DNA of 64,000 bases from the NCBI GenBank assembly GCA_029834535.1, contig JAQMWT010000388.1:213176-277175 (forward strand). The letters are read 5' to 3'. Source of the DNA: Chrysophaeum taylorii (taxonomy: Eukaryota > Sar > Pelagophyceae > Pelagomonadales > Pelagomonadaceae). The translations under genes were made by a program, and so were the position numbers. This document shows, in pieces, positions 48,702 to 61,315 of this stretch. Position 1 is the first letter of the stretch. Every line of letters begins with the position of its first letter. Below the pieces are notes generated by a model, which searched no databases, was not told where the DNA came from, and saw nothing but the letters and a program-made list of their open reading frames with translations.

Positions 48702-49742
48702 TACTTACTCCCCACACACACCCCCCTCTTAGCAGTCGACATTTAAAGACAACTATACGATGACCCCGACTAGGTCCCGCGTACTTATCTCCGCCCGTCA
48801 GGCACATCCCTCATACCCCACAACCCCACCCACATCCTTCATGCTCCCCACACACACCCCCCTCTTAGCAGTCGACATTTAAAGACAACTATACTTACGG
48901 CCGGTACCGAGGCAATCTCGCCCGACGTCAAGTCGTCCCAGACATCCTCACCACGCTCGACAACAAGGAGCAACTCTACGACATCAAAACCCTCGCTTGG
49001 GGTTCGTTGTACACCGCCCACGCCCTCCATCCCTCCCACCCGTCGCCTGTCGATCGGCGCGCAGCGCAAGTCCACTCCGAATACCTCGCTCACGCCCGCG
49101 GCATCGACGCCATCATCCCCAAGCCGGGTACAGCACCACCGCCTGGCTTCTTGGGCCCTGTCGAACAGCGGCTACGTAGCTACGGCACCGTCGCCGGCCT
49201 CGTCTTTGGTGCCTTCGGTGAGGCCAGCGCGGCGTGCCACGTTCTCGCCCAAACATGCGCAGAGCGCATCGCTGCGCGAACCTGGGTGACAAGCGGCTGC
49301 GCCAACTTCACAGAGGCAAAGGCGGCCCAAACTCGCCGCATCTACCGTGAGTGGGGGATCGCCAACGCATTAGGCCGGGCTCGCTGTGCCCTCACCGCCC
49401 TCACCCATGTCGCCGCCTCGGGGAACCCCGCCCAGGCCGCCCGATCCCAGCAGGACGTCACCCTTCGTCGCACATACGTCCGGCGGCAGCATGCGTACGA
49501 CCTACGGGCGGGGCCCGTCCTCTCTTCGCCTGCCCCACGCCTCGGCGATGACCCCGACTAGGTCCCGCGTACTTATCTCCGCCCGTCAGGCACATCCCTC
49601 ATACCCCACAAACCCACCCACACCCTTCATGCTCCCCACACACACCCCCCTCTTAGCAGTCGACATTTAAAGACAACTATACATACAACCCACCCACATC
49701 CTTCATGCTCCCCACACACACCCCCCCCCTCTTAGCAGTCGA
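48702..49742. repeat. Satellite-like repeats with a 136-bp direct repeat pair
   Basis: A motif CTCTTAGCAGTCGACATTTA followed by AAGACAACTATAC occurs with its GTCGA at 48735, 48871 and 49659. A further copy was split by the LTR element (GTCGA at 49738 and 60155). A longer 136-bp unit beginning GATGACCCCGACTAGGTCCC is found at 48759-48894 and 49547-49682, flanking the retroelement fragment between them. Confidence 0.8.
48896..49561 (+). mobile_element. 3'-terminal fragment of another retroelement ORF
   Basis: One frame is open from the satellite junction at 48896 to the stop at 49561. It includes RYRGNLARRQVVPDILTTL, GTVAGLVFGAFGEAS and AAQTRRIYREWGI. The GAFGE-type segment followed by AAQTxRIYR and an Arg/Ala helix also occurs at 61316-61900 on the other strand. 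This pattern is typical of the C-terminal part of reverse-transcriptase-type polyproteins of algal retroelements, from what I know of such sequences. The fragment lacks a start and is bounded by 136-bp repeats, so it is a 5'-truncated copy. It has no conserved RT core and is not expected to be active. Confidence 0.4.
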
Positions 49743-50123
49743 TGTGGCGTAAGGAGAATTTTAGGGGCTACCTGGCGTGCCTTCGAATCCTGGCTCGCCG
49801 ATCGCGTCCGTGCCCTTGGTGGGATCACTGGACGAGGATGGCCGTTCTCCCGCCACGCGACCACAAACAACTCCTGCGCCTGGTCCTCTCAACTTGAGGA
49901 TCGGCTGTTGCTTTATGATCAAAGATAATCGAAATCAGAAATCAGGGTGACACATGTCACGGAAAAGGAAGATGATGTCAGAGAAAACTCGGTGACACAT
50001 GTCACGGAAAAGGAAGATGATGTCAGAGAAAACTCTGACCTCATCGGAACGGAGTAGGGTGCCCCTGATAAGGGGGGGGCCTAGAAGAGGGGTAAGCCTT
50101 AGGAGGCGGGAGTTGCCGCCACA
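49743..50123 (-). repeat. 3' LTR
   Basis: 381 bp with TG...CA ends, about 95% alike to the other LTR outside an internal tandem-repeat difference. It contains two 44-bp tandem units with GTGACACATGTCAC and GATGATGTCAGAG, and a stem-loop at 50016-50045 with one mismatch. A purine-rich stretch read on the minus strand (AGGGGAGTCC) directly precedes it and could be the polypurine tract. Confidence 0.9.
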
Positions 50124-50163
50124 GGACTCCCCTGGTAAGAATTCGAGCTGCCCCAGCGAGGTG

Positions 50164-52344
50164 CTAGCGCGAGGAGCGCGGCTTCGCCTTACGAGCATCT
50201 CGTGAACGAATCTTCTGGTAAACGCGGGTGATGATCGGTTCAGGAACTCGACCACTGCGTAAAGTAAACTTGGGGACCAACACGTCAATCTCGTGCGGAG
50301 CGAAATCCGTGACACAAGGAGTTGTGTTGGAGGAAATTCGGGACTTGTCGGTGAAACTTCGACCTTCAACGTCCTTGAATTCGGGCTTGAGCTTGCGGTG
50401 CGAAAGGTGAGAGGTCGGCTTGAAATAAGCGACATCATCATTCGGACCCAAATCGGAATAGAAATGTAGAGCGACACGATCATTTTGGTAATCGTAAGGC
50501 TCGTAAACTTCGGCAACATAAATCTTCTTGCGCCAATCAGAGCGCTTTCGGTCAGGAATCCGGAAAACAACAAACTTACCGTGCTGATAATCATCACGGA
50601 AGGTTTCTTCGGGTTTGCGGATGGTTTGATCAACGATCGGAGGTACCATCACAGGCGTGATCTGACTTACATGAACACGTCTTTCTTCGGGCGGAGAGTC
50701 GAGAGACTCAATCCTATAGGTGACCGGGGAGAGGCGTTCCTTGATAATAAACGGCCCTCGCCATTCCGGTCGAAGTTTGTTCTGAAGGAAAGGGATGTAG
50801 AGCAAAACGTGCGATCCTTCCTTGTATTCAACATCAACATGATCAGCATTGTAAGCCAATCGCTGTTTCTTCAAAGCTTTATCACGAGCCTCGCGGACGA
50901 TCTTTGTATAATATTTCAATCGTTCGCGAGTCACGGCGACTGCATCAGAGCGAGTCTTCGGCAATAATCGCGTATCAAAGTCCATAAGCGTGTAGTCCGG
51001 CGGCAGCATCGGCTGACGGTTCAGGCGTAGCATAAAGGGAGAAATCTGCGTGCCTGGAATAAACTTGCGGTTATAGCAAAACGGAATATAATGAGCAAAG
51101 TCAGGCCAATCCGTGATGTTCCGGCCTTGAAGGCAAGCACGGAGGAAGGCCTTGATAAATCGGTTGACACGCTCAGCCGGGTTCGACTGGGCATGATAAG
51201 GAATCGTAGTTTGGTATCGTGTGTTAAAGAGATGGCAAAACTCGCGCATCAACTTGTTCACGAACTCTTTACCGTTGTCGGTACGAATCATCTGGGGCAA
51301 GTAGCCCTTGAGGAGAATGTTAATGACAAAAGACTCGAGGACAGACTCAGCAGTCTTATCGTTCAAAACATCCAGAATCAAGAAATGCGAGAACGGATCA
51401 AAAAATACTAGAAGATACGTCTCGGGACCAGCGCTGGGCAAGGGTCCAAATAAATCCATGCAAAGAACAGCACCATCACCATCGTAGACGGGCTGCTGCA
51501 AGAGTCCAGCTCGTTTCGGCTCAGGCGTACGAGCTTTCTGGCAAACTAAACATTCAGCAATGAAGACTCCAACTTCGTTCGACATGTGAGGCCACCAAAA
51601 TCGTTCTTGGATAGCCTGGACGGTACTGTGACGTCCCATATGACCACCGTTAACCGGAGTGTCATGATAGAGTCGAATAATGCGCTTGCGCAACGTAGCA
51701 GGTGCAACAATCATCGGGTGCAAATCAGCAGAAATGCGGTAAAGAACATCTTTAACGACTTCAAATCGTTCGTTCGCTCGGGAACGTCGTGGCGTCTGAC
51801 CTTGGGCCATTCGGTAGCGAATATCCTCGCACGTAGCATCAGATTCGTGCTCACGTGCGATCTCCGCGAGCGTCATATTATCGGGTATCTTATCGATATA
51901 ATCTTTGTAAGCGGCTGCGTCCTTGAAGATCTGTGGCTCATCGCGCGCACGGTTCTTCCGACGTTGTCTCGTAGCGTGAGACGTAGCCAATTTCATCGGA
52001 TCCTTTTCAGGATCTTCTTCCTCGTCTTCCGGCAGTTCGGTCGTAATAAACGACATTATGAAGTGGCAGCCGGAGACGGGAACTCCTTGGTCATCAACAG
52101 GTCGGGGGAGCTCTTGGAACACTAAATAAGCGTGGTTCAAAGGTTCTCCAAACTCGTCAGTCTCGATGACATGATCTATCGGGTTGCGGGAGAGACAGTC
52201 AGGGATACTCATTCCCGGTGACTTTCCCGGCTTGTAACCAAGTTCAGGGTCAAAATTGGCGAGGCGCATCGCCCAACGAGCAAGCTGCCCAGACGAGTGC
52301 GTCGCCTTACGTAAAAACGTCAAATTTCGGTGATCGGTCTCCAA
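50164..52344 (-). CDS. Integrase with RNase H end, LTR element pol (part 2)
   Basis: The frame is 726 codons and is open further upstream (to about 52445) without an ATG, so it is read from the RT frame. It begins with the end of RNase H (TDHRNLTFLRKATHSSGQLARW). Then come an H2C2 zinc domain (HDTPVNGGHMGRH...CLVCQKA) and the DDE core: CMDLFGPLP (first Asp), MIRTDNGKEFVN (second Asp) and HAQSNPAERVNRFIK (Glu). A GPF/Y module follows (WRGPFIIKERLSPVTYRI). Beyond it lies a 160-residue extension with KFVVFRIPDRKRSDWRKKIY and VALHFYSDLG, which resembles a small beta-barrel and could be a chromatin-binding module in place of a chromodomain. Confidence 0.9.
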   Translation of the reverse strand: METDHRNLTFLRKATHSSGQLARWAMRLANFDPELGYKPGKSPGMSIPDCLSRNPIDHVIETDEFGEPLNHAYLVFQELPRPVDDQGVPVSGCHFIMSFITTELPEDEEEDPEKDPMKLATSHATRQRRKNRARDEPQIFKDAAAYKDYIDKIPDNMTLAEIAREHESDATCEDIRYRMAQGQTPRRSRANERFEVVKDVLYRISADLHPMIVAPATLRKRIIRLYHDTPVNGGHMGRHSTVQAIQERFWWPHMSNEVGVFIAECLVCQKARTPEPKRAGLLQQPVYDGDGAVLCMDLFGPLPSAGPETYLLVFFDPFSHFLILDVLNDKTAESVLESFVINILLKGYLPQMIRTDNGKEFVNKLMREFCHLFNTRYQTTIPYHAQSNPAERVNRFIKAFLRACLQGRNITDWPDFAHYIPFCYNRKFIPGTQISPFMLRLNRQPMLPPDYTLMDFDTRLLPKTRSDAVAVTRERLKYYTKIVREARDKALKKQRLAYNADHVDVEYKEGSHVLLYIPFLQNKLRPEWRGPFIIKERLSPVTYRIESLDSPPEERRVHVSQITPVMVPPIVDQTIRKPEETFRDDYQHGKFVVFRIPDRKRSDWRKKIYVAEVYEPYDYQNDRVALHFYSDLGPNDDVAYFKPTSHLSHRKLKPEFKDVEGRSFTDKSRISSNTTPCVTDFAPHEIDVLVPKFTLRSGRVPEPIITRVYQKIRSRDARKAKPRSSR

Positions 52345-52409
52345 AACAGTCCGGTGCCCTTCGATGTAGGCTCGAAAGTGCTCTAGAGAAAGTATAACTG
52401 CCAGCAGCT

Positions 52410-53912
52410 CTAGCCGACGGGGCTCATAATTCGCATCTCCTTCGGCACAGCTCGGCTCCAGTATTCAATCACTCGTTCTTCTCGAGTCACTCTTCCGGCA
52501 TCGTCCTTGACTTCGACAATCTGGAAGAGATATGCTCCAAGTCCATCCTTGGAAGCATCGGATCGGATCTGAAAAGGCAGATCATAATCGGCGTGGTAGA
52601 CTCCACGGGAATCAACCAAAGCTTCAATAATCGTATCCCAAGCTTTCTGACACTCGGGCGTCCACTCGAACTTTACACCTTCGAGGCATAATCGTCTCAA
52701 CGGTTCCACAATCTTCGAGTAGCCCTTCACATATCGCCGGCAGTAATTACTCATGCCGATGAAAGAGCGTATCTGGGTCTTCGGGGAAGTATTCGGTAAA
52801 GTACCTGGAATCGGCATCTTCTGCAGTGCTTCCAGCGTCTTCGGATTCGGCTTCAAGCCTTCTGGGGTAGAAATGTGTCCCAGAAATTCTATATCATCCT
52901 TGAGAAGGTGGAACTTCGCGGTTCGACCGCTGTACCCTCTCTGTGCCAAATGACACATCACTTCGATCAAAACTTGTAAATGTCGATGAAGATCGTCGGA
53001 TCCCATCATAATATCGTCAACAAACGCAACCAAGTCTCGATACATCCATTTCGAAAGGTCGCTCGCCATTTGCTTGCAGAAAAGAGCTCCGGCCGTCTTC
53101 ACACCTAGAGGTAATCGCAAGAAACTATGAGCGCCAAGTGGGCTAACCATCGTGACAGCGTCTTGCGCTGCCGGATCCAGACGAAGGTTGTGGTATCCCC
53201 ATCTAATATCAATGCATGTCCGCCATCGTCTCATCGCGAGAAAGGCTAAAGCATCATCTTGTCGAATGTTTGGCCAACTGTCATTGACCAATTGATCGTT
53301 GAGCTGACGTAAGTCAACTGCAGCACGGAACGCGTTTGACGTTCCAATCTCAGCTCCTTTCTTCGGAAGCATCAACACAGGAAAGCCCCAAGGTGAGTTG
53401 GCCGGACGAATGACTCCATCCCGGCACCACTCGCTGATCTGCTTGCGGAGACAATCGAGCTTCGCAGGCGTCAATCGGTAGGGCGTCATCTTAATCGGTC
53501 GCGGATTCGCGTCTTTGAATCGTAGAGACACAGGAGGCGAGTCCACAGGTCTCATAATCGGGTCGAAAAAGGCCCAAGAATATTGCACACAGTGACGGAG
53601 CATCAGTTTCGCCTCGTCATCTAAGTGCGGATTGTCAGGAATTCCCAGCTCCTGAACAACCTTGTCAACTTCTTCCTTCGTAGGAATTTGAACTTTCATT
53701 GCTTCGTTGTCCTTGACATGCTCAGGAGTTTGCGGCAGCGGTGCACCCTCAGCATCGCGCGGCGCATCTTTCCATGGCACATCGAACTTTTTCTCGTATT
53801 TTAGTTTCACTTCCGGGTGGCTTTTGTTGATCCTCTCGCCTTTGACACGAACACTCGGCTCGCTCTTAATCTTCGGTTCCCGATCTCGCTCAGGATCTGG
53901 CGGAACGTCCAA
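52410..53912 (-). CDS. Reverse transcriptase and RNase H start, LTR element pol (part 1)
   Basis: The frame is 500 codons without an ATG at its start. It overlaps the methyltransferase frame by about 106 nt in the -1 register, so ribosomal frameshifting or a fused polyprotein is likely. RT blocks in order: FRAAVDLRQLND, CIDIRWGYHNLRLD, LPLGVKTAGALFCK and FVDDIMM (catalytic xxDD), then the primer-grip region with FLGHISTPEGLKPNP and RSFIGMSNYCRRYV. RNase H starts with IRSDASKDGLGAYLFQ and the frame stops at SRAVPKEM...SPVG, where the rest of the RNase H domain continues in the -1 frame. An N-terminal 120-residue charged region links it to the methyltransferase. Confidence 0.92.
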   Translation of the reverse strand: MDVPPDPERDREPKIKSEPSVRVKGERINKSHPEVKLKYEKKFDVPWKDAPRDAEGAPLPQTPEHVKDNEAMKVQIPTKEEVDKVVQELGIPDNPHLDDEAKLMLRHCVQYSWAFFDPIMRPVDSPPVSLRFKDANPRPIKMTPYRLTPAKLDCLRKQISEWCRDGVIRPANSPWGFPVLMLPKKGAEIGTSNAFRAAVDLRQLNDQLVNDSWPNIRQDDALAFLAMRRWRTCIDIRWGYHNLRLDPAAQDAVTMVSPLGAHSFLRLPLGVKTAGALFCKQMASDLSKWMYRDLVAFVDDIMMGSDDLHRHLQVLIEVMCHLAQRGYSGRTAKFHLLKDDIEFLGHISTPEGLKPNPKTLEALQKMPIPGTLPNTSPKTQIRSFIGMSNYCRRYVKGYSKIVEPLRRLCLEGVKFEWTPECQKAWDTIIEALVDSRGVYHADYDLPFQIRSDASKDGLGAYLFQIVEVKDDAGRVTREERVIEYWSRAVPKEMRIMSPVG

Positions 53913-55015
53913 ATTTGGTTGTCGGGGGCAGCAGAAGAAGCATGAGACGTCCCCGGCTCATCTGTTGCAGGCGGAATCAACGGTACCTCTGGAGGTTTCC
54001 ATTTGGTGCGATCTTGAAGATCATCAGTCGACACCCATCTTACGACACGTGTGCGCGTGTTTAACAGCGGAACTTGTACGTGACGAAGGGTGGTTTCATC
54101 AATTTGTAAATAATAATCAAACGGTCGGTCTGCAGGACTCAACGCTGACGGCAAAGCTTCGCCGCTCAGGTGAAATTCCTTGGTCACAGAGTTGTGCAGA
54201 TCGAGCATTAATAAGGCCATCGTGTCAGGTGGCACGACGGACGCCAAGTGTTTCAACGAGGTCGTCCTGGAGAAGCCGGCCCAATCAAAATCAGGGGGCA
54301 TCGTCAGCAACTCCGAAGTCATTTTCAGATTCAGAGATCTGTAATCGGAACGGTGCGGTCCTACGCGAAGCGGGACACGCGTAACGGTATAAGCTGCGTC
54401 TGTCGCGGCTCGTGATGATCCTAAATTGTTCATCTGAAGTAAATGTCGTTCGTCGGCGTAGCCAAGTGCTGCGGCGAACTTTTGCTGCATATTCTTGCAA
54501 GTCTTTGGAACTGCGCGCAAATGGAGCGGATGGCTGGAAACCAACAATCGCACGCGACAGCTCATCAAACTGGTTATGTCGTAAAAATTGACGACGTATA
54601 CGTAAGGGTGCAAACGTGCAACGTAAGAAATAATCGAAGCCTCCTGCTCTATCAACCACATGAAGAAACCAGCCATCTTGCATAATTTCATCGTCCAGTG
54701 GGTAGCGGTGACTCCCTTCCCAACATCTCTGGAAGTCAAGTTGCACAGAGCGGAGTGTACGCAGGGTGGCGACGCGACACACATCGACGACGACCATTCC
54801 GCGTAGGGTAAATAAGATTCGATCAACCGTAAGGTTGTAACATAGCGACCACACAATGTGTGCTGCACCACAGGAATATTCGGAAAGTTCTTGTGGTGGA
54901 TCTGGTTGGCGGTGTCCGACGCATCGAGTGCTAGCACGACTCGAAACGACGTCCCACACGTTTCGTTGGCTCGTTGGAGACCTAAAGTACTGCCTCCGGC
55001 TCCACTGAACAGCAT
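53807..55015 (-). CDS. DNA cytosine-5 methyltransferase-like protein within the LTR element
   Basis: The protein is 402 aa from the ATG at 55015, whose A is the last base of the preceding TGA. It begins at once with motif I (MLFSGAGGSTLGL). The next strand ends in LALDAS...NFPNIPVVQ, like motifs II-III. Motif IV has the catalytic Cys as VASPPCVHSALC (Cys85). Motif VI is altered (MWLIEQEA, about aa 119-126, where ENV is usual), and motif VIII reads SCRVRLLVSS. The C-terminal LLTMPPDFDW and LASVVPPDTMALLML resemble motifs IX-X. This is the order of C5 methyltransferases with a shortened target-recognition region. The last 90 residues are a linker leading into RT. Activity cannot be asserted because motif VI is non-standard. 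Confidence 0.78.
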   Translation of the reverse strand: MLFSGAGGSTLGLQRANETCGTSFRVVLALDASDTANQIHHKNFPNIPVVQHTLCGRYVTTLRLIESYLPYAEWSSSMCVASPPCVHSALCNLTSRDVGKGVTATHWTMKLCKMAGFFMWLIEQEASIISYVARLHPYVYVVNFYDITSLMSCRVRLLVSSHPLHLRAVPKTCKNMQQKFAAALGYADERHLLQMNNLGSSRAATDAAYTVTRVPLRVGPHRSDYRSLNLKMTSELLTMPPDFDWAGFSRTTSLKHLASVVPPDTMALLMLDLHNSVTKEFHLSGEALPSALSPADRPFDYYLQIDETTLRHVQVPLLNTRTRVVRWVSTDDLQDRTKWKPPEVPLIPPATDEPGTSHASSAAPDNQIWTFRQILSEIGNRRLRASRVFVSKARGSTKATRK

Positions 55016-55233
55016 CACCACCTTGCGATAAGTGATTGGAAGCCATTGAACCTTTTCATATCGGCGGCGGATCTCCGCTTCGGTGATCTCGCGGCATTTC
55101 TTTTCATCTTTTCTGACCTTCGAGCGAAATCGTCGCTGCCTTCAGGTCGTTTGAGGGTGGACTTGTCCGTCATAGCGGTCATAGCGTCCTTCTGCACCGT
55201 GCTCAGCAGCATCGGCGGGGAGATTCGTCGCAT
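55015..55233 (-). CDS. Short basic ORF4 of the LTR element
   Basis: A 72-codon frame starting at the ATG at 55233 overlaps the end of ORF3 by 31 nt and ends in TGATG, where its stop overlaps the methyltransferase start. The product is Lys/Arg-rich (RRSEKMKRNAARSPKRRSAA). It could be a nucleocapsid-like basic peptide or simply a translational bridge. Confidence 0.45.
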   Translation of the reverse strand: MRRISPPMLLSTVQKDAMTAMTDKSTLKRPEGSDDFARRSEKMKRNAARSPKRRSAADMKRFNGFQSLIARW

Positions 55234-56792
55234 CGCGTCAAATGACTAGCGACAGAAACGGTGAAAGAAAGGTTCCCCTTGTCGTATCCTTCTTCACATT
55301 CTTTCGTAAGTTCGTTGATCGTAGAGACGTTCAACTCATCTTCGTACCTAACGATATCACCAATCGCAAGGGCTTCGCCTTGAGTGACGATCGTCGGCAC
55401 TTCTTCCGTGGCAGTAACTGCCACCCGAGCAGCGGACCGGTCGCGCTCTTCGCAAGAAGAACACATTCCTTCGACAACTCCCAACTGCTCGTTCTCAGCA
55501 AACGTAGCGACGAAAACCTGTCCTTTTTCCATAGGCTTCGACAAAATAACCGGTAGATTGTACGTTCGACCGGGCTCGATTTGAAGCGTGCGCGCGGCAT
55601 AAGCGATTACTTCTCGCGCGTCTTCTCCCGGAGCTGGGGAGAATTTGGTCGTAGCATGTCCCCGCGTAGCCATGGCTACCTTACGTTCCGGCGGCGGGCT
55701 TCGGAGATCTTTAATCGTGCTCAAACGAGCATAAACTCGAGTCTTGACCAGGTCGAGACTCTGCCGAAAGGCATCGTGTTGATGATTGTAAATCGGTACG
55801 GTTATCGGATTTCGATCGTAAATAGACCGAAAGGTCACGATTGGTGCATCGACCCGTTCATCCTTAACTTTAATCTTTTTGCGCCCGTAGACGACTTGGG
55901 TTCGACAAAAACAGATCCGATCATGGGGAAAATCCACGATGGCTCCTAAAACTCGTATATCGCGCCCTCCCAACAGGAACAAATAATTCGTATCGGCTAC
56001 AATAGCGACAATGGGGGCAGCGAAATCGTCGGCGAAGGCGACCCGAAGGGCGATCCAACGATGGATCGTCGTCGTATTCAACCCTGATCTGTACAGCTTG
56101 CGCTTAATCGGAAGTTCGCCTTCATCGAAAATCAACTGATCTTTGGTCAACTTTTTGACCATTTCTCGGCAAATATAAGAAACATCTGCCATTCCATCGA
56201 CACCAATGGTCGTCGAGAATTTCGGTCCGTCACGATTCCTGTAGATGTGACAGGCTATAAACGTTAAAGTACCCGTATCTAAGCAACTGAGGGTAATCAA
56301 ATCATCTTCGATCGTCTTGCCATCTCGCGGCGTCAACGAAGTGTGAGCACATCGGGCTCTGAATCGCTCATCTCCGGGGTTGGGCATCGATACCGCGGCT
56401 TGAGCTTTCGTATTATCTGTTGTTGGCGTCTTCGCCATAATGCTCGCGGCAGCCTCTTTATCTGGCGGCTTCCGCTCTTCCTCCAAGACAATCTCAGAGG
56501 GAATCAGTGCTGGTAGGGGATCCTGGTCTTCGTAGTTCACGGAAGCAAAGGACCCCTCCCATAAATCATTCATTTCGTCTTTCCAGAATGCATCTGTAAA
56601 TTCATTCGTCGCCTGCTGATCCTCATCAGCATCGGCGATCGGTTCCGTGTCAGCTGCGGCTTTGAGTCTGCAGCTGCGCGGTTGTTCTGGTGGCTTCTTC
56701 AGCAAGAAATTCCGAGCTTTCGTCCACCAATCCTGCAGGTTCCACGTCTGCTCGTCTTCGTCACACTTGAGAACGCTGCTAATCTTCTTCAT
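55203..56792 (-). CDS. Retropepsin-like ORF3 of the LTR element
   Basis: The protein is 529 aa from the ATG at 56792. The middle resembles a retroviral-type aspartic protease: TTIGVDGMADVSYICREMV where the active-site Asp-Thr/Ser-Gly would be, a central beta strand IALRVAFADDFAAPIVAIV, and YLFLLGGRDIRVLGAIVDF matching the flap-to-end segment (I/L-L-G-x-D). The catalytic triad is not standard (VDG instead of DTG/DSG), so the assignment rests on the surrounding pattern. The N-terminal 130 residues are acidic. A C-terminal pair GMCSSCEERD could bind metal. Its ATG lies four bases after the stop of ORF2. Confidence 0.6.
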   Translation of the reverse strand: MKKISSVLKCDEDEQTWNLQDWWTKARNFLLKKPPEQPRSCRLKAAADTEPIADADEDQQATNEFTDAFWKDEMNDLWEGSFASVNYEDQDPLPALIPSEIVLEEERKPPDKEAAASIMAKTPTTDNTKAQAAVSMPNPGDERFRARCAHTSLTPRDGKTIEDDLITLSCLDTGTLTFIACHIYRNRDGPKFSTTIGVDGMADVSYICREMVKKLTKDQLIFDEGELPIKRKLYRSGLNTTTIHRWIALRVAFADDFAAPIVAIVADTNYLFLLGGRDIRVLGAIVDFPHDRICFCRTQVVYGRKKIKVKDERVDAPIVTFRSIYDRNPITVPIYNHQHDAFRQSLDLVKTRVYARLSTIKDLRSPPPERKVAMATRGHATTKFSPAPGEDAREVIAYAARTLQIEPGRTYNLPVILSKPMEKGQVFVATFAENEQLGVVEGMCSSCEERDRSAARVAVTATEEVPTIVTQGEALAIGDIVRYEDELNVSTINELTKECEEGYDKGNLSFTVSVASHLTRCDESPRRCC

Positions 56793-56796
56793 AAAT

Positions 56797-58146
56797 CTAT
56801 CCTTTTCTTCCGGCGGCGTATCCGTGTCTCGATCCGTAGTAATCGAAACCGTTTCGGGGGGGGTCCGCAGGAAAAGATGGCGTCGTCCCCGACGTCAACT
56901 CTGTCGTAAAATCGTCGTCTGCAATACTCGCGCTGGTCATCGTCTCGTCAGTCGAATGCGCGCACGAGCTATCACTGCAGAAATTCATGTCTGGCTCACA
57001 GCCAGTTCGGTCGCCAGCGGTCGTCTCTGGAGGGTCCAAAGATAAGCCGATGGCATCGAGGGCTTCCTCATCAAAAATAAACGGTGGGTCGTCCATGGAC
57101 GACTCGTCAAATAACGTTAACGCAGACACTGGTTCACAAAGTGTAGCTTCTTCATCTTCCGAATCTGAATCGCCTTCCCAGTATCGTGTAGCTTCAAGTT
57201 CCTCGCTCGAATCTTCGAGCTCATCGCTCGACATCTGCTCATAAATCTGTGCCAAAGACCGACGATTGGTCAGCACGTCGTTGGGTGGCTCGTCCATCGG
57301 TGGGCGAGCAAGATCTTCGAATGCGGCCGCGGCAAGGGCGTCGGCTGCGTCGTCGGTGCGGGTGTCCGTGTTCGGGTACACCGTCACTCCTAATGGTAAC
57401 TGTTGACCGCAAGGGGTCGTAAATGCGAGCGTTGCGCTCAAAAAACTCGAATTATTTTGGTGTCGGCCTCCGTCGTATTCGTCGTAGCGCGATCGGCGTC
57501 GTCTGTGCCGGCGCGAACTTCGACTGGGGCTCTTGTTATCTTTGTCTCTCTCTGGCGTCAGTTCGGCAGGTCCTAGTACCTCTGGATCGTCCCTGTAGGC
57601 GACTGGTGCTCCCAAGTCTATCCGAACTGGCTCAATCGTCTCTTCTATCGAAATATCGACGCCTTCGTCGTCTTTTTGCCAAACCTCCGACCAAACGTAA
57701 ATTAAATCTCGGTTGGCCAATAACTCCGTGCCTCGGGGTCGGAATTGTACTTCTTTCCGCTCTGGCGGTTTCTTCTTCAGGAAACATTGAGCTCGTATCC
57801 TTATCGTCGGTACGCTCATCTTCCTATTATCCATGCTGATCGTCCCATCCAAATTCGGTTCCGGGCGGCAGCTATACTCATCCCTCATAGTATGTTCGGG
57901 ATCTTTCTTTATCACGTAGCCATCATCATATGCAGGCTGAAAATCTTTGAACTCTTCGTTCGTGAGTAATACGCCAGGGCTTTCACTGAGCTCCAAAGGC
58001 AGTTCATGCGTTATAAGATTCTTCATCTCTTCCGCTTTCGTATTCATTTTCTCGGCCGTTTCACTCGGCCTCTCATCCACTCCATCGCTTCGAATATCGG
58101 CAATCGCCTCGTCACTAAAAATGTCGGCACACGAATTGTCTGCCAT
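56797..58146 (-). CDS. Gag-like ORF2 of the LTR element
   Basis: The protein is 449 aa from the ATG at 58146, two bases after the stop of ORF1 (TGA-CG-ATG). It is acidic overall with one basic cluster (SRSSRRHRRRRSRYDEY). It ends in TSGTTPSFPADPP, nearly the same as the end of ORF1 (TSGTTPSSLQPP), so the two ORFs may share a processing site or derive from duplication. No capsid or zinc-knuckle motif is seen. Its position between ORF1 and the protease suggests a structural protein. Confidence 0.5.
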   Translation of the reverse strand: MADNSCADIFSDEAIADIRSDGVDERPSETAEKMNTKAEEMKNLITHELPLELSESPGVLLTNEEFKDFQPAYDDGYVIKKDPEHTMRDEYSCRPEPNLDGTISMDNRKMSVPTIRIRAQCFLKKKPPERKEVQFRPRGTELLANRDLIYVWSEVWQKDDEGVDISIEETIEPVRIDLGAPVAYRDDPEVLGPAELTPERDKDNKSPSRSSRRHRRRRSRYDEYDGGRHQNNSSFLSATLAFTTPCGQQLPLGVTVYPNTDTRTDDAADALAAAAFEDLARPPMDEPPNDVLTNRRSLAQIYEQMSSDELEDSSEELEATRYWEGDSDSEDEEATLCEPVSALTLFDESSMDDPPFIFDEEALDAIGLSLDPPETTAGDRTGCEPDMNFCSDSSCAHSTDETMTSASIADDDFTTELTSGTTPSFPADPPRNGFDYYGSRHGYAAGRKG

Positions 58147-58148
58147 CG

Positions 58149-59264
58149 TCAAAGGGAATAAAACATCTGCAAAAACGTCTGCAGTCGGTTCGTCGGGGGC
58201 TGCAAAGAAGAAGGCGTCGTCCCCGACGTCATATCTGTCAAAAACTGGCCACCAAAGGGCACGTGACGTTCGATGGGTGTGTACTCAGGTGCGCGCTTAT
58301 CATTCGAGGTAATCCTCTGCGACGCATCGTCGATCGATCGTGGAGGCGACGTGCCATCCACTTGAATGTTCGGAGGTAAACTCATAGCATCGAGCGTAGC
58401 AGCGGCGGGTCCCTTACTTTGGGCGTCATCGGCTGCACGGGGCTCGTAAATCGGATTCACACATAACTCCGGCGCGTCGTCAAGACCGAGGGTTGTGTCA
58501 GCTGACGACAAATCATATCGTGCCACCAACGGTGACACCGGGTTAGAAGCGGTAGACGGCTTCGACCCGTAGTTTAACGACGTTTCGGTCAAATTCTTCG
58601 ATTCTGTGGGGATTTTGGTTTGGGTGAGCTCCTTCGACTTGGATTGCTCTTGATCGTAGTTTAACGACGTTTCGGTCATCTCGGACGACTCGTCGTCGTC
58701 GTCGCGCGGCTTCCTGACTTTCGCTCGCGTTCGCGTGGGCGGCGGTACCTCCGAAGTTCGGAATTCTTCCTCGAGACCGTTCGCTCGCCTCGGGCGATTC
58801 GGCATACGCAATTCATCTATTTCACGTGTCAACGCGCTTGCTTGATCTTGGAGGGCGTCTGCTCGAGCATTGGCCATACGCAGTTGCTCTTGCATTATTT
58901 TTATCTCCTTCCGGTGTAGCCGTTCTTTTCGTTCGTTCTCTTCCCCTAAGAGTTTTAAAAGTCTTTCTTGCGCGCGTTCGTTCTCTTCGCGTAATGCCCG
59001 CAAGTGAGCTTCGTAGAACTCATTCATTTTCGTTGCATCCGGGGGTTCTGCACGCGTTGACGGAGCTGTCGATCGTCCTCCCGCCGGTCTCTCCGTGGGC
59101 TTGCCGTCGTTGTAGTTTAGCTCTTCTTCCTCGTCAACTTCTGTATCGTGCTCTTCTTCATCATCATCATTATCATCATCGTCATTCCGCTCGTTCGTCT
59201 CATCCTGACGGCTTAGCGGTTCTTCATATCGTAGCTGCTCGACGGCAGCATCATCGTCTTCCAT
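58149..59264 (-). CDS. Coiled-coil gag-like ORF1 of the LTR element
   Basis: The protein is 371 aa from the ATG at 59264. Residues 25-55 are an Asp/Glu run. Residues 85-150 form a strong coiled coil (HLRALREENERAQERLLKLL, KIMQEQLRMANARADALQ), suited to self-assembly. The rest is Ser/Thr/Pro-rich. ETSLNY occurs twice with similar flanks, a short internal repeat. As the first ORF of the element it is the likely gag. The frame 59358-59678 between it and the 5' LTR is coding-like but lacks an ATG. Confidence 0.55.
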   Translation of the reverse strand: MEDDDAAVEQLRYEEPLSRQDETNERNDDDDNDDDEEEHDTEVDEEEELNYNDGKPTERPAGGRSTAPSTRAEPPDATKMNEFYEAHLRALREENERAQERLLKLLGEENERKERLHRKEIKIMQEQLRMANARADALQDQASALTREIDELRMPNRPRRANGLEEEFRTSEVPPPTRTRAKVRKPRDDDDESSEMTETSLNYDQEQSKSKELTQTKIPTESKNLTETSLNYGSKPSTASNPVSPLVARYDLSSADTTLGLDDAPELCVNPIYEPRAADDAQSKGPAAATLDAMSLPPNIQVDGTSPPRSIDDASQRITSNDKRAPEYTPIERHVPFGGQFLTDMTSGTTPSSLQPPTNRLQTFLQMFYSL

Positions 59265-59357
59265 ATCGGCTCTGGCTCGTTCTAGTCGGCCGAGATCAGA
59301 GCGGGTCCAAAATGGTTGAGTCGTCGTCGTTCTCGTGCTCCTTCGGCTCCGGAACTT

Positions 59358-59678
59358 CTAATCGTCCACGACACGCGTAATATCGTCGTTGCGTGCGTCT
59401 TCCACCGACAAATCTATCCGTACGGTGGGCGGCAGAACTCGTCTCTGCCCGGCAAACAATGCCTTATCCGTGAGTTGCGATCTCACTCCGCTCGCCTGCG
59501 GCAGCGGTACCCGGGTTGCGCGTCGGTTAGCACCAAATCGCGCGTCGTCACTTCCGACGACAAACGTATCCGGCCGGGGAACTTTCCCACGGCAATGGTC
59601 CTTCTGGAATTCCTTGTCGGCGCGCTTGATCAGGGCGCGCACGGCTTGTCCGGACCGTGTAGAGAATGCAAGATGCAC
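59358..59678 (-). other. Leader open frame without ATG
   Basis: A 106-codon frame lies between the 5' LTR and ORF1. It contains FQKDHCRGKVPRPDTFVVGS and VRIDLSVEDARNDDI and looks protein-like. No ATG starts it, so it may be the 5' untranslated leader, or an eroded ORF. Confidence 0.3.
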
Positions 59679-59710
59679 TAGTTCGTTGCGACCGATATAG
59701 TCGCTCGAAT

Positions 59711-59729
59711 CTCGTATTCCTCCACCACC
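59711..59729 (-). promoter_or_regulatory. Candidate primer-binding site
   Basis: Directly next to the 5' LTR the minus strand reads GGTGGTGGAGGAATACGAG. Its complement ends in TCCACCA, as a tRNA 3' end with CCA would. The matching tRNA is not identified. Confidence 0.35.
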
Positions 59730-60154
59730 TGTGGCGTAAGGAGAATTTTAGGGGCTACCTGGCGTGCCTTCGAATCCTGGCTCGCCGATCGCGTCCGTGC
59801 CCTTGGTGGGATCACTGGACGAGGATGGCCGTTCTCCCGCCACGCGACCACAAACAACTCCTGCGCCTGGTCCTCTCAACTTGAGGATCGGCTGTTGCTT
59901 TATGATCAAGGATAATCGAAATCAGAAATCAGGGTGACACATGTCACGGAAAAGGAAGATGATGTCAGAGAAAACTCTGACATCATCGGAACGGAGTAGG
60001 GTGCCCTGATGTCAGAGAAAACTCGGTGACACATGTCACGGAAAGGAAGATGATGTCAGAGAAAACTCTGACCTCATCGGAACGGAGTAGGGTGCCCCTG
60101 ATAAGGGGGGCCCTAGAAGAGGGTAAGCCTTAGGAGGCGGGAGTTGCCGCCACA
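59730..60154 (-). repeat. 5' LTR
   Basis: 425 bp with TG...CA ends. It is 44 bp longer than the other LTR because of extra internal repeat sequence. It carries a perfect 13-bp stem (GATGATGTCAGAG, AAAA loop, CTCTGACATCATC) at 59958-59987. It should contain the element's promoter. Confidence 0.9.
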
Positions 60155-61315
60155 GTCGACATTTAAAGACAACTATACATCTTTATGCACCATACACACA
60201 TCCCCCTCTTTAGCAGTCGACCTCACCGTCATTGGCCGAGCGTTCCAACTAGGTGGCCGTTCCTTGAAAAATGCGATCCCAGAAAATCAAACTCGACCAA
60301 CCAGGCGAAATACTTTGACCCTAGAAAATCAAACCCAACCAACCAGGCGAACGGAATCAACCCGAGCAATCCAACCAAACCAACCGCCAAACCAGCCAAT
60401 GCCAACATCCAGCGTTCTCGGTCGCGTCGTCTTCTGGGGCCCGCAAGACACGCGCGCCGTTCCTTCCGAGCAACGCGCATCATTGTGGCCAAAACTCTTG
60501 GCATGGAGATGACGAACACGTTCGGATTTGCTCTCCTCTGGCGACGGCCGGCGCTCTAACACCCGCCCTGGGACCATAAAGAAAGATCCAATAGAGGTAT
60601 TGCATGTCGCTTCGTTGTAAACGGTGCAGCGGCTTCAGCCGGAGCCGCCGCCGCCGTTGTCGTCGCTGGTGCCGGTGGTGGTGCCGGAGCAGGTGCAGGG
60701 CTGGTGCCATGGCGCTTGCGGCGGCGCAGGCTCTGCAGCGTATTTCTTAAGGATTCCTCGACGCCAGCGTCGTACATCTCCTGGGTCCGCAACTTCTCGT
60801 CGAACAGGTCCTTCAAATCTTTCAACTCAGCCCGGCGCGCAGCTCGAGGTCGTCCATGGTTCAGGAATGCCTAGGCGAAGAGGCAAAGAAAAAAAGAAAA
60901 AGGCGTGCGTCGGCGAAGAGAATGAATCAAACCAAACCAATCAAAAATGCGTACGTCGGCGAAAAAATGAATCTCACAAAACAAACCGGAGACGCGTCGC
61001 GTCAAGATGATAATCCAACCCAACCAACTGCCTCTGCGAAGAAAATGTATCGAAATATCCAACATTGGCAACAAAAACCAAACTTATCCTTTTTTTTTTT
61101 TTGGGGGGGTCAAACCAGGTTAGATCGGCTCGGCCAAGTGTACTCATCACACCACGGTTGATGTGGTTGAGTTCGAATTGAGGGACCGGGTCGAAGTCAG
61201 CGCAAAGCGAAACTTTGGAGGTTTGAGAACTAAGTGAATGTGGGGTTTAGGAGTAGACTCAAAGGTTAGCGAACGTGCGCTGATCAAAGCAGCTTAGATT
61301 GGCGGGGCGAGAAGA
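60155..61315. other. Right flank of the LTR element, degenerate simple repeats
   Basis: Starts with the GTCGA duplication and the rest of the split satellite motif. From 60270 to 60400 and 60900 to 61030 there are degenerate AATCAAACC/CCAACC-type repeats with AAAATGAATC units. A minus-strand frame near 60556-60830 contains LKDLFDEKLRTQEMYDAGVE, possibly an exon remnant, but no gene can be defined. Confidence 0.4.

What the first reader, a model, noticed from the sequence alone, without database searches (positions are those of the whole stretch)
53807..55015. LTR retrotransposon that carries its own DNA cytosine methyltransferase
Seen: between the protease-like ORF and RT of a structurally complete Ty3/Gypsy-type element is a 402-aa protein with motif I (LFSGAGGSTLGL), motif IV (SPPC), a motif VIII-like CRVRLL and motif IX/X-like ends. 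Known: cytosine-5 methyltransferases captured by LTR retrotransposons have been reported in a few lineages such as dinoflagellates and a charophyte alga. Inference: this may be an independent or new-lineage case in which the element methylates its own copies, or genomic repeats, to escape or control silencing. ENV in motif VI is replaced by IEQ, so activity or specificity may be changed.
Basis: partly seen in the sequence, partly recalled or inferred. Interest (0 to 1): 0.92.

Follow-up and report, generated by a model that had tools for sequence, protein, structure and literature searches.

The report
Methyltransferase-carrying LTR retrotransposons in an alga
In the genome of a marine pelagophyte alga, two unrelated kinds of jumping gene each appear to have picked up a different cytosine-methyltransferase domain and keep it under selection, which suggests that marking their own genetic material helps them copy themselves.

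Summary
At 49743-60154 (minus strand) lies a Ty3/gypsy LTR element with a C5-cytosine-methyltransferase-like domain between its protease-like segment and RT. PF00145 is hit above cut-off, by 23 of 24 aligned open copies. At least 153 places in this pelagophyte genome carry the domain, under purifying selection like the element's other enzymes (median dN/dS 0.07 between two subfamilies). The ORF's last ~35 residues are a frame-dependent tail after a variable C-run.

Beyond the finding: a Ty1/copia family in the same genome (about 140 places) carries a second C5-MTase domain upstream of integrase. It resembles a phage enzyme, the first resembles Dnmt2, and the two do not significantly resemble each other: probably two independent captures. 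The host has Dnmt2 and a SNF2-bearing Dnmt5; no Dnmt1/Dnmt3 was detected. Copies show no CpG-decay footprint, so lasting CpG methylation of resident copies is not supported. Activity and substrate are unknown. Retrotransposon-borne DNMTs are known in dinoflagellates and Klebsormidium: new variant of a known kind.

The parts
49743..60154 (-). Ty3/gypsy-type LTR retrotransposon, whole element
   Evidence: LTRs, target-site duplication and RT-RNaseH-integrase order
59730..60154 (-). 5' LTR (TG...CA), with an internal repeat longer than in the 3' LTR
   Evidence: LTRs aligned over 378 columns with 8 mismatches and 50 gap columns
49743..50123 (-). 3' LTR (TG...CA)
49738..49742 (.). target-site duplication GTCGA, left copy
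   Evidence: read
60155..60159 (.). target-site duplication GTCGA, right copy
   Evidence: read
56797..59357 (-). gag-like region, in two frames in this copy
   Evidence: position only; no Pfam hit over its cut-off
55203..56894 (-). protease-like segment (D-T-G and LLGGRDI-like stretches, by eye)
   Evidence: no Pfam hit
53807..55141 (-). ORF with the C5-MTase domain; domain about 54107-55108, the last ~35 codons are a frame-dependent tail
54977..55012 (-). motif I, LFSGAGGSTLGL
   Evidence: PF00145 match
54761..54769 (-). motif IV, P-P-C (catalytic Cys), invariant in 24 of 24 aligned open copies
54641..54649 (-). motif VI, E-Q-E in place of E-N-V; Glu in 23 of 24
54548..54556 (-). motif VIII, R-V-R, both Arg invariant in 24 of 24
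54227..54337 (-). motif IX-like and X-like stretches (SLNLKMTSELLTMPPDF ... KHLASVVPP)
53924..53928 (-). C-run at the MTase-RT junction, up to 12 C in other copies; sets the frame between MTase and RT
52410..53957 (-). reverse transcriptase with the start of RNase H
   Evidence: PF00078 7.5e-13, PF17919 1e-11
50164..52464 (-). rest of RNase H and integrase (H2C2, rve, p58 C-terminal domain)
   Evidence: PF17917 2.4e-14, PF17921 2e-18, PF00665 3e-12, PF22938 2.7e-7

Best explanation
A Ty3/gypsy retrotransposon lineage of a pelagophyte alga has a C5-cytosine methyltransferase as a regular Pol domain between the protease-like segment and RT, and a Ty1/copia lineage of the same genome has acquired a different C5-MTase between its protease-like stretch and integrase. 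Shown: the domains, their position, copy number, constraint, conservation of catalytic residues, and the lack of significant mutual resemblance. Inferred: because it is part of Pol, the enzyme is packaged with RT and integrase and acts inside the particle on the element's own nucleic acid, most likely the new cDNA before integration. The copy would then arrive already marked; in a host whose DNA methylation seems to rest on the maintenance-type enzyme Dnmt5, such a mark could be kept after insertion or could hide the incoming DNA from host surveillance.
For: PF00145 above cut-off in the window copy and matched by 23 of 24 aligned open copies. At least 153 places: 103 (106 matches, merged) plus 50 further of the 111 matches; C10/C297 may be one place assembled twice. 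72 of the 106 matches have no stop (counted from the table). One frame of 3,063 aa holds MTase, RT and integrase zinc-finger matches in L021. Median dN/dS 0.070 (range 0.053-0.101) over 120 pairs between two subfamilies, open copies only (one search had one copy twice and gave the same median). MTase pN/pS 0.157 against 0.050 RT, 0.197 RNaseH-IN, 0.221 protease-like, 0.387 and 0.330 linkers, 0.558 an alignable part of gag (one copy of each subfamily). Catalytic Cys/Arg 24 of 24, Glu 23 of 24. Second, copia-type family: PF00145 1.6e-8, rve 0.0021 (below its cut-off), RVT_2 5e-39 in one 1,952-aa frame; 16 of 16 members hit PF00145; 154 matches, the 150 pasted rows merging to 140 places; median dN/dS 0.159 over 190 pairs (first 195 codons of 20 copies). 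Gypsy MTase against host Dnmt2: 0 of 1000 shuffles reach the score; copia MTase against phage KP15's C5-MTase: 0 of 1000; against each other 61-62 of 1000. Host Dnmt5-like gene: PF00145 9.1e-17 plus SNF2 3.3e-13; best PDB sequence 7r76 at 2.5e-143, labelled 'DNA repair protein Rad8' there; that this is Cryptococcus Dnmt5 is recalled. Precedent for activity: retrotransposon DNMTs that methylate CG de novo (PMC5890265, abstract).
Against: No CpG-decay footprint: CpG-to-T singletons at 42 of 479 sites against 99 of 988 other C sites, p 0.51; CpG o/e 1.30 against 1.34. Departures from canonical motifs (recalled): N-V to Q-E in VI, GNAVPP to ASVVPP in X, Q to S before R-x-R, so activity is not assured. 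PF00145 matches only about the first 57 residues of the gypsy domain; against the phage enzyme and Dnmt5 the gypsy domain is not above shuffles (211 and 181 of 1000). The AlphaFold2 model is useless (mean pLDDT 35.2). The Dnmt2-like affinity fits an RNA substrate as well as DNA. In the cited precedent the tested SymbioLINE DNMT did not methylate DNA in yeast (PMC5890265 Discussion). The window copy is frame-broken. The search for host DNMTs is six-frame and capped, so introns could hide others.
Confidence: 0.5

Rival explanations
1. The domain is an RNA methyltransferase: it methylates the element's genomic RNA or the tRNA primer inside the particle, as Dnmt2 methylates tRNA.
For: The gypsy domain's best resemblance is to host Dnmt2 (local score 59 against 33.5 +- 4.9 shuffled, 0 of 1000); the profile's two best PDB hits are Dnmt2/TRDMT1, though only at E 0.11-0.12; hhalign with host Dnmt2 E 2.8e-4 for one comparison, probability 41%. 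No CpG footprint in the DNA. De Mendoza et al. raise RNA methylation for their LINE DNMTs (PMC5890265 Discussion, read).
Against: The copia family's domain resembles a phage C5-MTase annotated as a DNA methyltransferase, not Dnmt2 (517 of 1000 shuffles reach that score), although it sits at a comparable place in Pol. The resemblance to Dnmt2 covers motifs I to IV only.
Confidence: 0.22
2. The domain is catalytically dead but kept as a nucleic-acid-binding or structural part of Pol.
For: Altered motifs VI, VIII and X in the gypsy family and an altered motif I in the copia family.
Against: Cys and both Arg invariant, Glu 23 of 24; constraint as strong as in RNaseH-integrase.
Confidence: 0.18
3. 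The enzyme methylates integrated copies or genomic repeats in the nucleus and so controls silencing.
For: Large copy number; precedent that some retrotransposon DNMTs methylate CG de novo (PMC5890265, abstract).
Against: No excess CpG decay in copies, no CpG depletion. The tests are blind to non-CpG methylation and to efficient repair.
Confidence: 0.08
4. Chance motif matches or a passive relic in a degraded ORF.
For: Weak single-sequence profile score (24 bits); 34 of 106 matches hold a stop.
Against: 23 of 24 aligned copies hit, two subfamilies about 81% identical, dN/dS 0.07, invariant catalytic residues.
Confidence: 0.02

Closest known systems
KnitGypsy-Dnmt3 of Klebsormidium nitens (de Mendoza et al. 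2018, PMC5890265, section read)
   Same: A C5-MTase inside the Pol ORF of a Ty3/gypsy LTR element, conserved key residues, purifying selection (Ka/Ks < 0.2 there, median 0.07 here)
   Different: There the domain is a Dnmt3 and the host a charophyte; here the best resemblance found is Dnmt2 (no Dnmt3 was compared), the host is a stramenopile, and a second, copia-type family carries another MTase. The legend there gives a DIRS-like repeat structure; here there are two LTRs with a target-site duplication
SymbioDIRS-Dnmt3 and SymbioLINE-Dnmt of Symbiodinium (same paper)
   Same: Hundreds of intronless DNMTs borne by retrotransposons in an alga; several unrelated retrotransposon types in one genome
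   Different: DIRS and LINE elements, not LTR elements with a DDE integrase; Dnmt3 or an orphan LINE lineage; dinoflagellate host
DNMT3 in LTR Copia and DIRS elements of streptophytes and dinoflagellates (PMC12344493, passages read)
   Same: A C5-MTase in a copia-type element
   Different: DNMT3 there; here a phage-like domain in a pelagophyte
Dnmt2/TRDMT1
   Same: Best detectable relative of the gypsy domain; SPPC and R-x-R line up
   Different: E-Q-E in motif VI, 10 residues shorter between the Glu and the second Arg of R-x-R (33 against 43), embedded in Pol
DIRS elements with Dam-like adenine methyltransferases (mentioned in PMC5890265)
   Same: Methyltransferase in a retrotransposon
   Different: Unrelated enzyme family and base

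Membership tests
C5-cytosine methyltransferase (PF00145) | Profile match above the curated cut-off | tested here: met
   24 bits (cut-off 22), 26 with 30 more residues; 23 of 24 copies match at E 0.01 or better; only about the first 57 residues align
C5-cytosine methyltransferase (PF00145) | Motif IV P-C with catalytic Cys | tested here: met
   P-P-C in 24 of 24
C5-cytosine methyltransferase (PF00145) | Motif VI E-N-V | tested here: inconclusive
   Glu kept (23 of 24) at the spacing of the KP15 enzyme, N-V replaced by Q-E
C5-cytosine methyltransferase (PF00145) | Motif VIII R-x-R | tested here: met
   24 of 24; the Q before it is S in 24 of 24
C5-cytosine methyltransferase (PF00145) | Motif X GNAVPP (recalled form) | tested here: inconclusive
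   ASVVPP
C5-cytosine methyltransferase (PF00145) | Rossmann-like MTase fold | tested here: inconclusive
   Model mean pLDDT 35.2, pTM 0.27; no fold search made
C5-cytosine methyltransferase (PF00145) | Methyl transfer to C5 of cytosine | not testable with these tools
   needs biochemistry
Ty3/gypsy LTR retrotransposon | Order RT-RNaseH-integrase | tested here: met
Ty3/gypsy LTR retrotransposon | Two LTRs, TG...CA, with target-site duplication | tested here: met
Ty3/gypsy LTR retrotransposon | Aspartic protease | tested here: inconclusive
   motif by eye only; no Pfam hit
Retrotransposon-borne DNMT3 (KnitGypsy-Dnmt3) | MTase in Pol of a gypsy element | tested here: met
   one open frame holds MTase, RT and integrase matches in L021
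Retrotransposon-borne DNMT3 (KnitGypsy-Dnmt3) | MTase groups with DNMT3 | not tested
   no DNMT3 sequence was aligned and no tree was built; the profile's two best PDB hits were Dnmt2, at E above 0.1
Dnmt2 | Sequence resemblance beyond shuffled controls | tested here: met
   0 of 1000 shuffles, motifs I-IV only
Dnmt2 | E-N-V and Dnmt2 spacing of motifs | tested here: not met
   E-Q-E; Cys to Glu 38 against 41, Glu to second Arg 33 against 43 in host Dnmt2

The most novel reading that the evidence does not exclude
In this pelagophyte, whose only detected candidate nuclear DNA methylase is a maintenance-type Dnmt5, the de novo methyltransferases are supplied by retrotransposons: two superfamilies independently captured different C5-MTases at nearly the same place in Pol, mark their cDNA before integration, and the host's Dnmt5 propagates the mark.
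Probability: 0.1. Interest if true: 0.92.

Novelty: new variant of a known kind. Interest (0 to 1): 0.7.

Why it matters
Two unrelated LTR-retrotransposon superfamilies in one genome appear to have taken up different C5-MTase stocks at a comparable place, ahead of the polymerase/integrase part of Pol. Together with the dinoflagellate and charophyte cases this would make methyltransferase capture a repeated solution rather than a curiosity, and it points to a step in the particle (RNA, primer or cDNA) as the target. A host with a Dnmt5 and no detected Dnmt3 makes the question of where new methylation comes from directly testable by a methylome.

Tried and rejected
Chance or relic: rejected. Cassette swap (RT copies without MTase): 63 of 125 RT places have a listed MTase within 2.5 kb; of the other 62, 6 were read and 6 of 6 hold MTase sequence, 5 of them broken or rearranged and one (L074) open, and 7, one of them among the 6, have a match near by; 50 of 125 remain unchecked. 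CpG-methylation footprint: none (L006 was dropped because it alone gave 355 singletons). Homologues elsewhere: none at E 1e-3 for the gypsy MTase (5,891 candidates) or the copia MTase (only the 8,000 candidates sharing most words were scored) in a database of 5.8 billion proteins; none confirmed in viral contigs, where only two short patterns each were scanned. hhalign gypsy against copia MTase, copia against Dnmt2, gypsy against Dnmt5: no useful match. Programmed frameshift at the C-run: both frame classes occur and homopolymer errors in the assembly are possible, so not claimed. Prokaryote scan for Dnmt2 relatives, six patterns: none. Third copia family: only a stretch matching the copia MTase's motif IX-X end and integrase could be read, so a whole MTase there is not shown. 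Selection estimates use open copies only: of 36 loci, 7 were dropped for stops and 1 for running off the locus; two more are the window copy itself; L003 and L024 are the same copy and both were, so repeats the between-subfamily estimate without L003. Synonymous sites are near saturation between subfamilies (median dS 1.69).
Full report
What is there. The element lies at 49743-60154 on the minus strand. Its LTRs (59730-60154 and 49743-50123) begin TG and end CA and are flanked by GTCGA on both sides. They align over 378 columns with 8 mismatches and 50 gap columns; they differ in an internal repeat. The internal part carries, in order, gag-like ORFs, a protease-like ORF without a Pfam hit, the MTase ORF, RT, RNase H and integrase: the Ty3/gypsy order. 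In this copy these lie in several frames; in another copy (L021) one frame of 3,063 aa holds the MTase, RT and integrase matches.

The MTase. PF00145 matches at E 3e-5 (7.8e-6 with 30 more upstream residues) but aligns only over the first ~57 residues; 23 of 24 aligned open copies match. The other motifs were read from alignments: P-P-C, E-Q-E, R-x-R, and IX- and X-like stretches. AlphaFold2 gave no usable model (mean pLDDT 35.2).

Copies and selection. One search lists 106 matches (103 places after merging), 72 of the 106 without a stop; a query from the second subfamily lists 111 matches, of which 50 are new places. Only the best candidates are scored, so these are lower bounds. Between the two subfamilies the median dN/dS is 0.070 (0.053-0.101) over 120 pairs (20 x 6 open sequences), with synonymous sites near saturation (median dS 1.69). 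By domain, between one copy of each subfamily (L021, L026), pN/pS is 0.157 for the MTase, against 0.050 for RT, 0.197 for RNaseH-IN, 0.221 for the protease-like part, 0.387 and 0.330 for the linkers on either side and 0.558 for the part of gag that aligns; the first 470 residues do not align. The domain behaves like a working enzyme of the element.

The second family. A genome-wide search with PF00145 found 57 places: a host Dnmt2 (L027; PDB 1g55 at 3.9e-39), a host Dnmt5-like gene (L028/L069; PF00145 plus SNF2; PDB 7r76 at 2.5e-143, labelled Rad8 there, recalled to be Cryptococcus Dnmt5), and 55 others. 28 of these 55 were given as loci and 28 of 28 match one retroelement family. Its Pol (L057, one frame of 1,952 aa) has a protease-like stretch (by eye), PF00145, a weak rve match and RVT_2, i.e. 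the Ty1/copia order. One search gives 154 matches; the 150 rows I pasted merge to 140 places. 16 of 16 aligned members hit PF00145; median dN/dS is 0.159 over 190 pairs of 20 sequences, first 195 codons.

Independent capture. In shuffle tests the gypsy MTase resembles host Dnmt2 (0 of 1000) and not the phage C5-MTase (211) or Dnmt5 (181); the copia MTase resembles the phage KP15 C5-MTase (0 of 1000), annotated as similar to NlaX/ScrFIA, and not Dnmt2 (517) or Dnmt5 (360); the two do not significantly resemble each other (61-62 of 1000). This suggests two captures from different sources, placed comparably in Pol. The gypsy domain, though a PF00145 member, fails the phage comparison, so the test has limited power; a tree with full reference sets was not made. 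A third copia family shares the motif IX-X end and integrase with the second; its fragment has 150 listed matches, the cap. Its catalytic half was not read.

Host. An inorganic pyrophosphatase in the window has its best named matches in pelagophytes (Pelagophyceae sp. CCMP2097, Pelagomonas, Aureococcus; 67-68%) and an 82% match to an MMETSP transcript whose organism is not shown. I therefore call the host a pelagophyte; the species is not identified. Pelagophytes are reported to have DNMT5a and DNMT6, and Aureococcus a dense linker methylation that goes with DNMT5 (PMC9998398, passages read); DNMT5 is described as a maintenance enzyme and Cryptococcus neoformans as lacking de novo activity (PMC10538959, passages read). 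No Dnmt1, Dnmt3 or Dnmt6 was recognised among the loci, but introns and the candidate cap could hide them, and 27 of the 57 places were not given as loci.

Function. Position in Pol implies packaging with RT and integrase (established for LTR elements; inference here). I rate marking of cDNA in the particle as most likely, RNA or primer methylation next, a dead binding domain third. Integrated copies show no CpG decay (42 of 479 CpG against 99 of 988 other C sites, p 0.51) and no CpG depletion, which weighs against lasting CpG methylation of resident copies but is blind to transient, non-CpG or RNA methylation and to efficient repair.

Known and new. Retrotransposon-borne DNMTs are reported for Symbiodinium (LINE, DIRS) and Klebsormidium (gypsy) (PMC5890265: abstract, section 5 part 1, sections 9 and 11 read), and DNMT3 in copia and DIRS elements of streptophytes and dinoflagellates (PMC12344493, passages read). 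In the listings (4 of 4 papers; 15 of 91; 15 of 45; 25 of 224; 12 of 2,405) I saw no title for a pelagophyte or other stramenopile case of a C5-MTase in an LTR element; the lists are capped and the library holds open-licence papers only. A Sola DNA transposon of Ectocarpus carries a methyltransferase predicted to make N4-methylcytosine or N6-methyladenine (PMC12477816, passages). New here: the lineage, enzymes not recognisable as Dnmt3, and two superfamilies with different enzymes in one genome.

Noticed in passing
53924-53928: C-run at the MTase-RT junction, up to 12 long among copies; its length sets whether MTase and RT share a frame. Could be slippage-prone biology or homopolymer error in the assembly.
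   Followed up: partly
L076 (G000:C560:4200-7000): Another copia family, with 150 matches to its fragment (the cap), shares a motif IX-X-like stretch and integrase with the MTase-bearing copia family; its upstream half was not read.
   Followed up: partly
L069 (G000:C621:16400-23000): Host Dnmt5-like gene in one open frame of 2,086 aa with DNMT and SNF2 domains.
   Followed up: yes
L057, residues about 300-890 of the frame: The copia MTase has a very long stretch (about 300 aa) between motif VIII and the IX-like motif, and an altered motif I (AGGL for GxGG).
   Followed up: no
55203-56894: The protease-like region has a D-T-G and a V-D-G-M-A-D stretch; the latter stands where D-S-G-A would be expected (recalled) and reads V-D-R-M-A-D in L074.
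   Followed up: no
59700-59727: Candidate primer-binding site beginning TGGTGGAGGAATACGAG just inside the 5' LTR; the tRNA was not identified.
   Followed up: no
G000:C10:46921-48030 and G000:C297:46942-48051: Two contigs with an MTase copy at nearly the same coordinates and equal scores: perhaps the same place assembled twice.
   Followed up: no
48758-48898 and 49546-49686: A 141-bp direct repeat (98%) just beside the element, start-to-start spacing 788.
   Followed up: no
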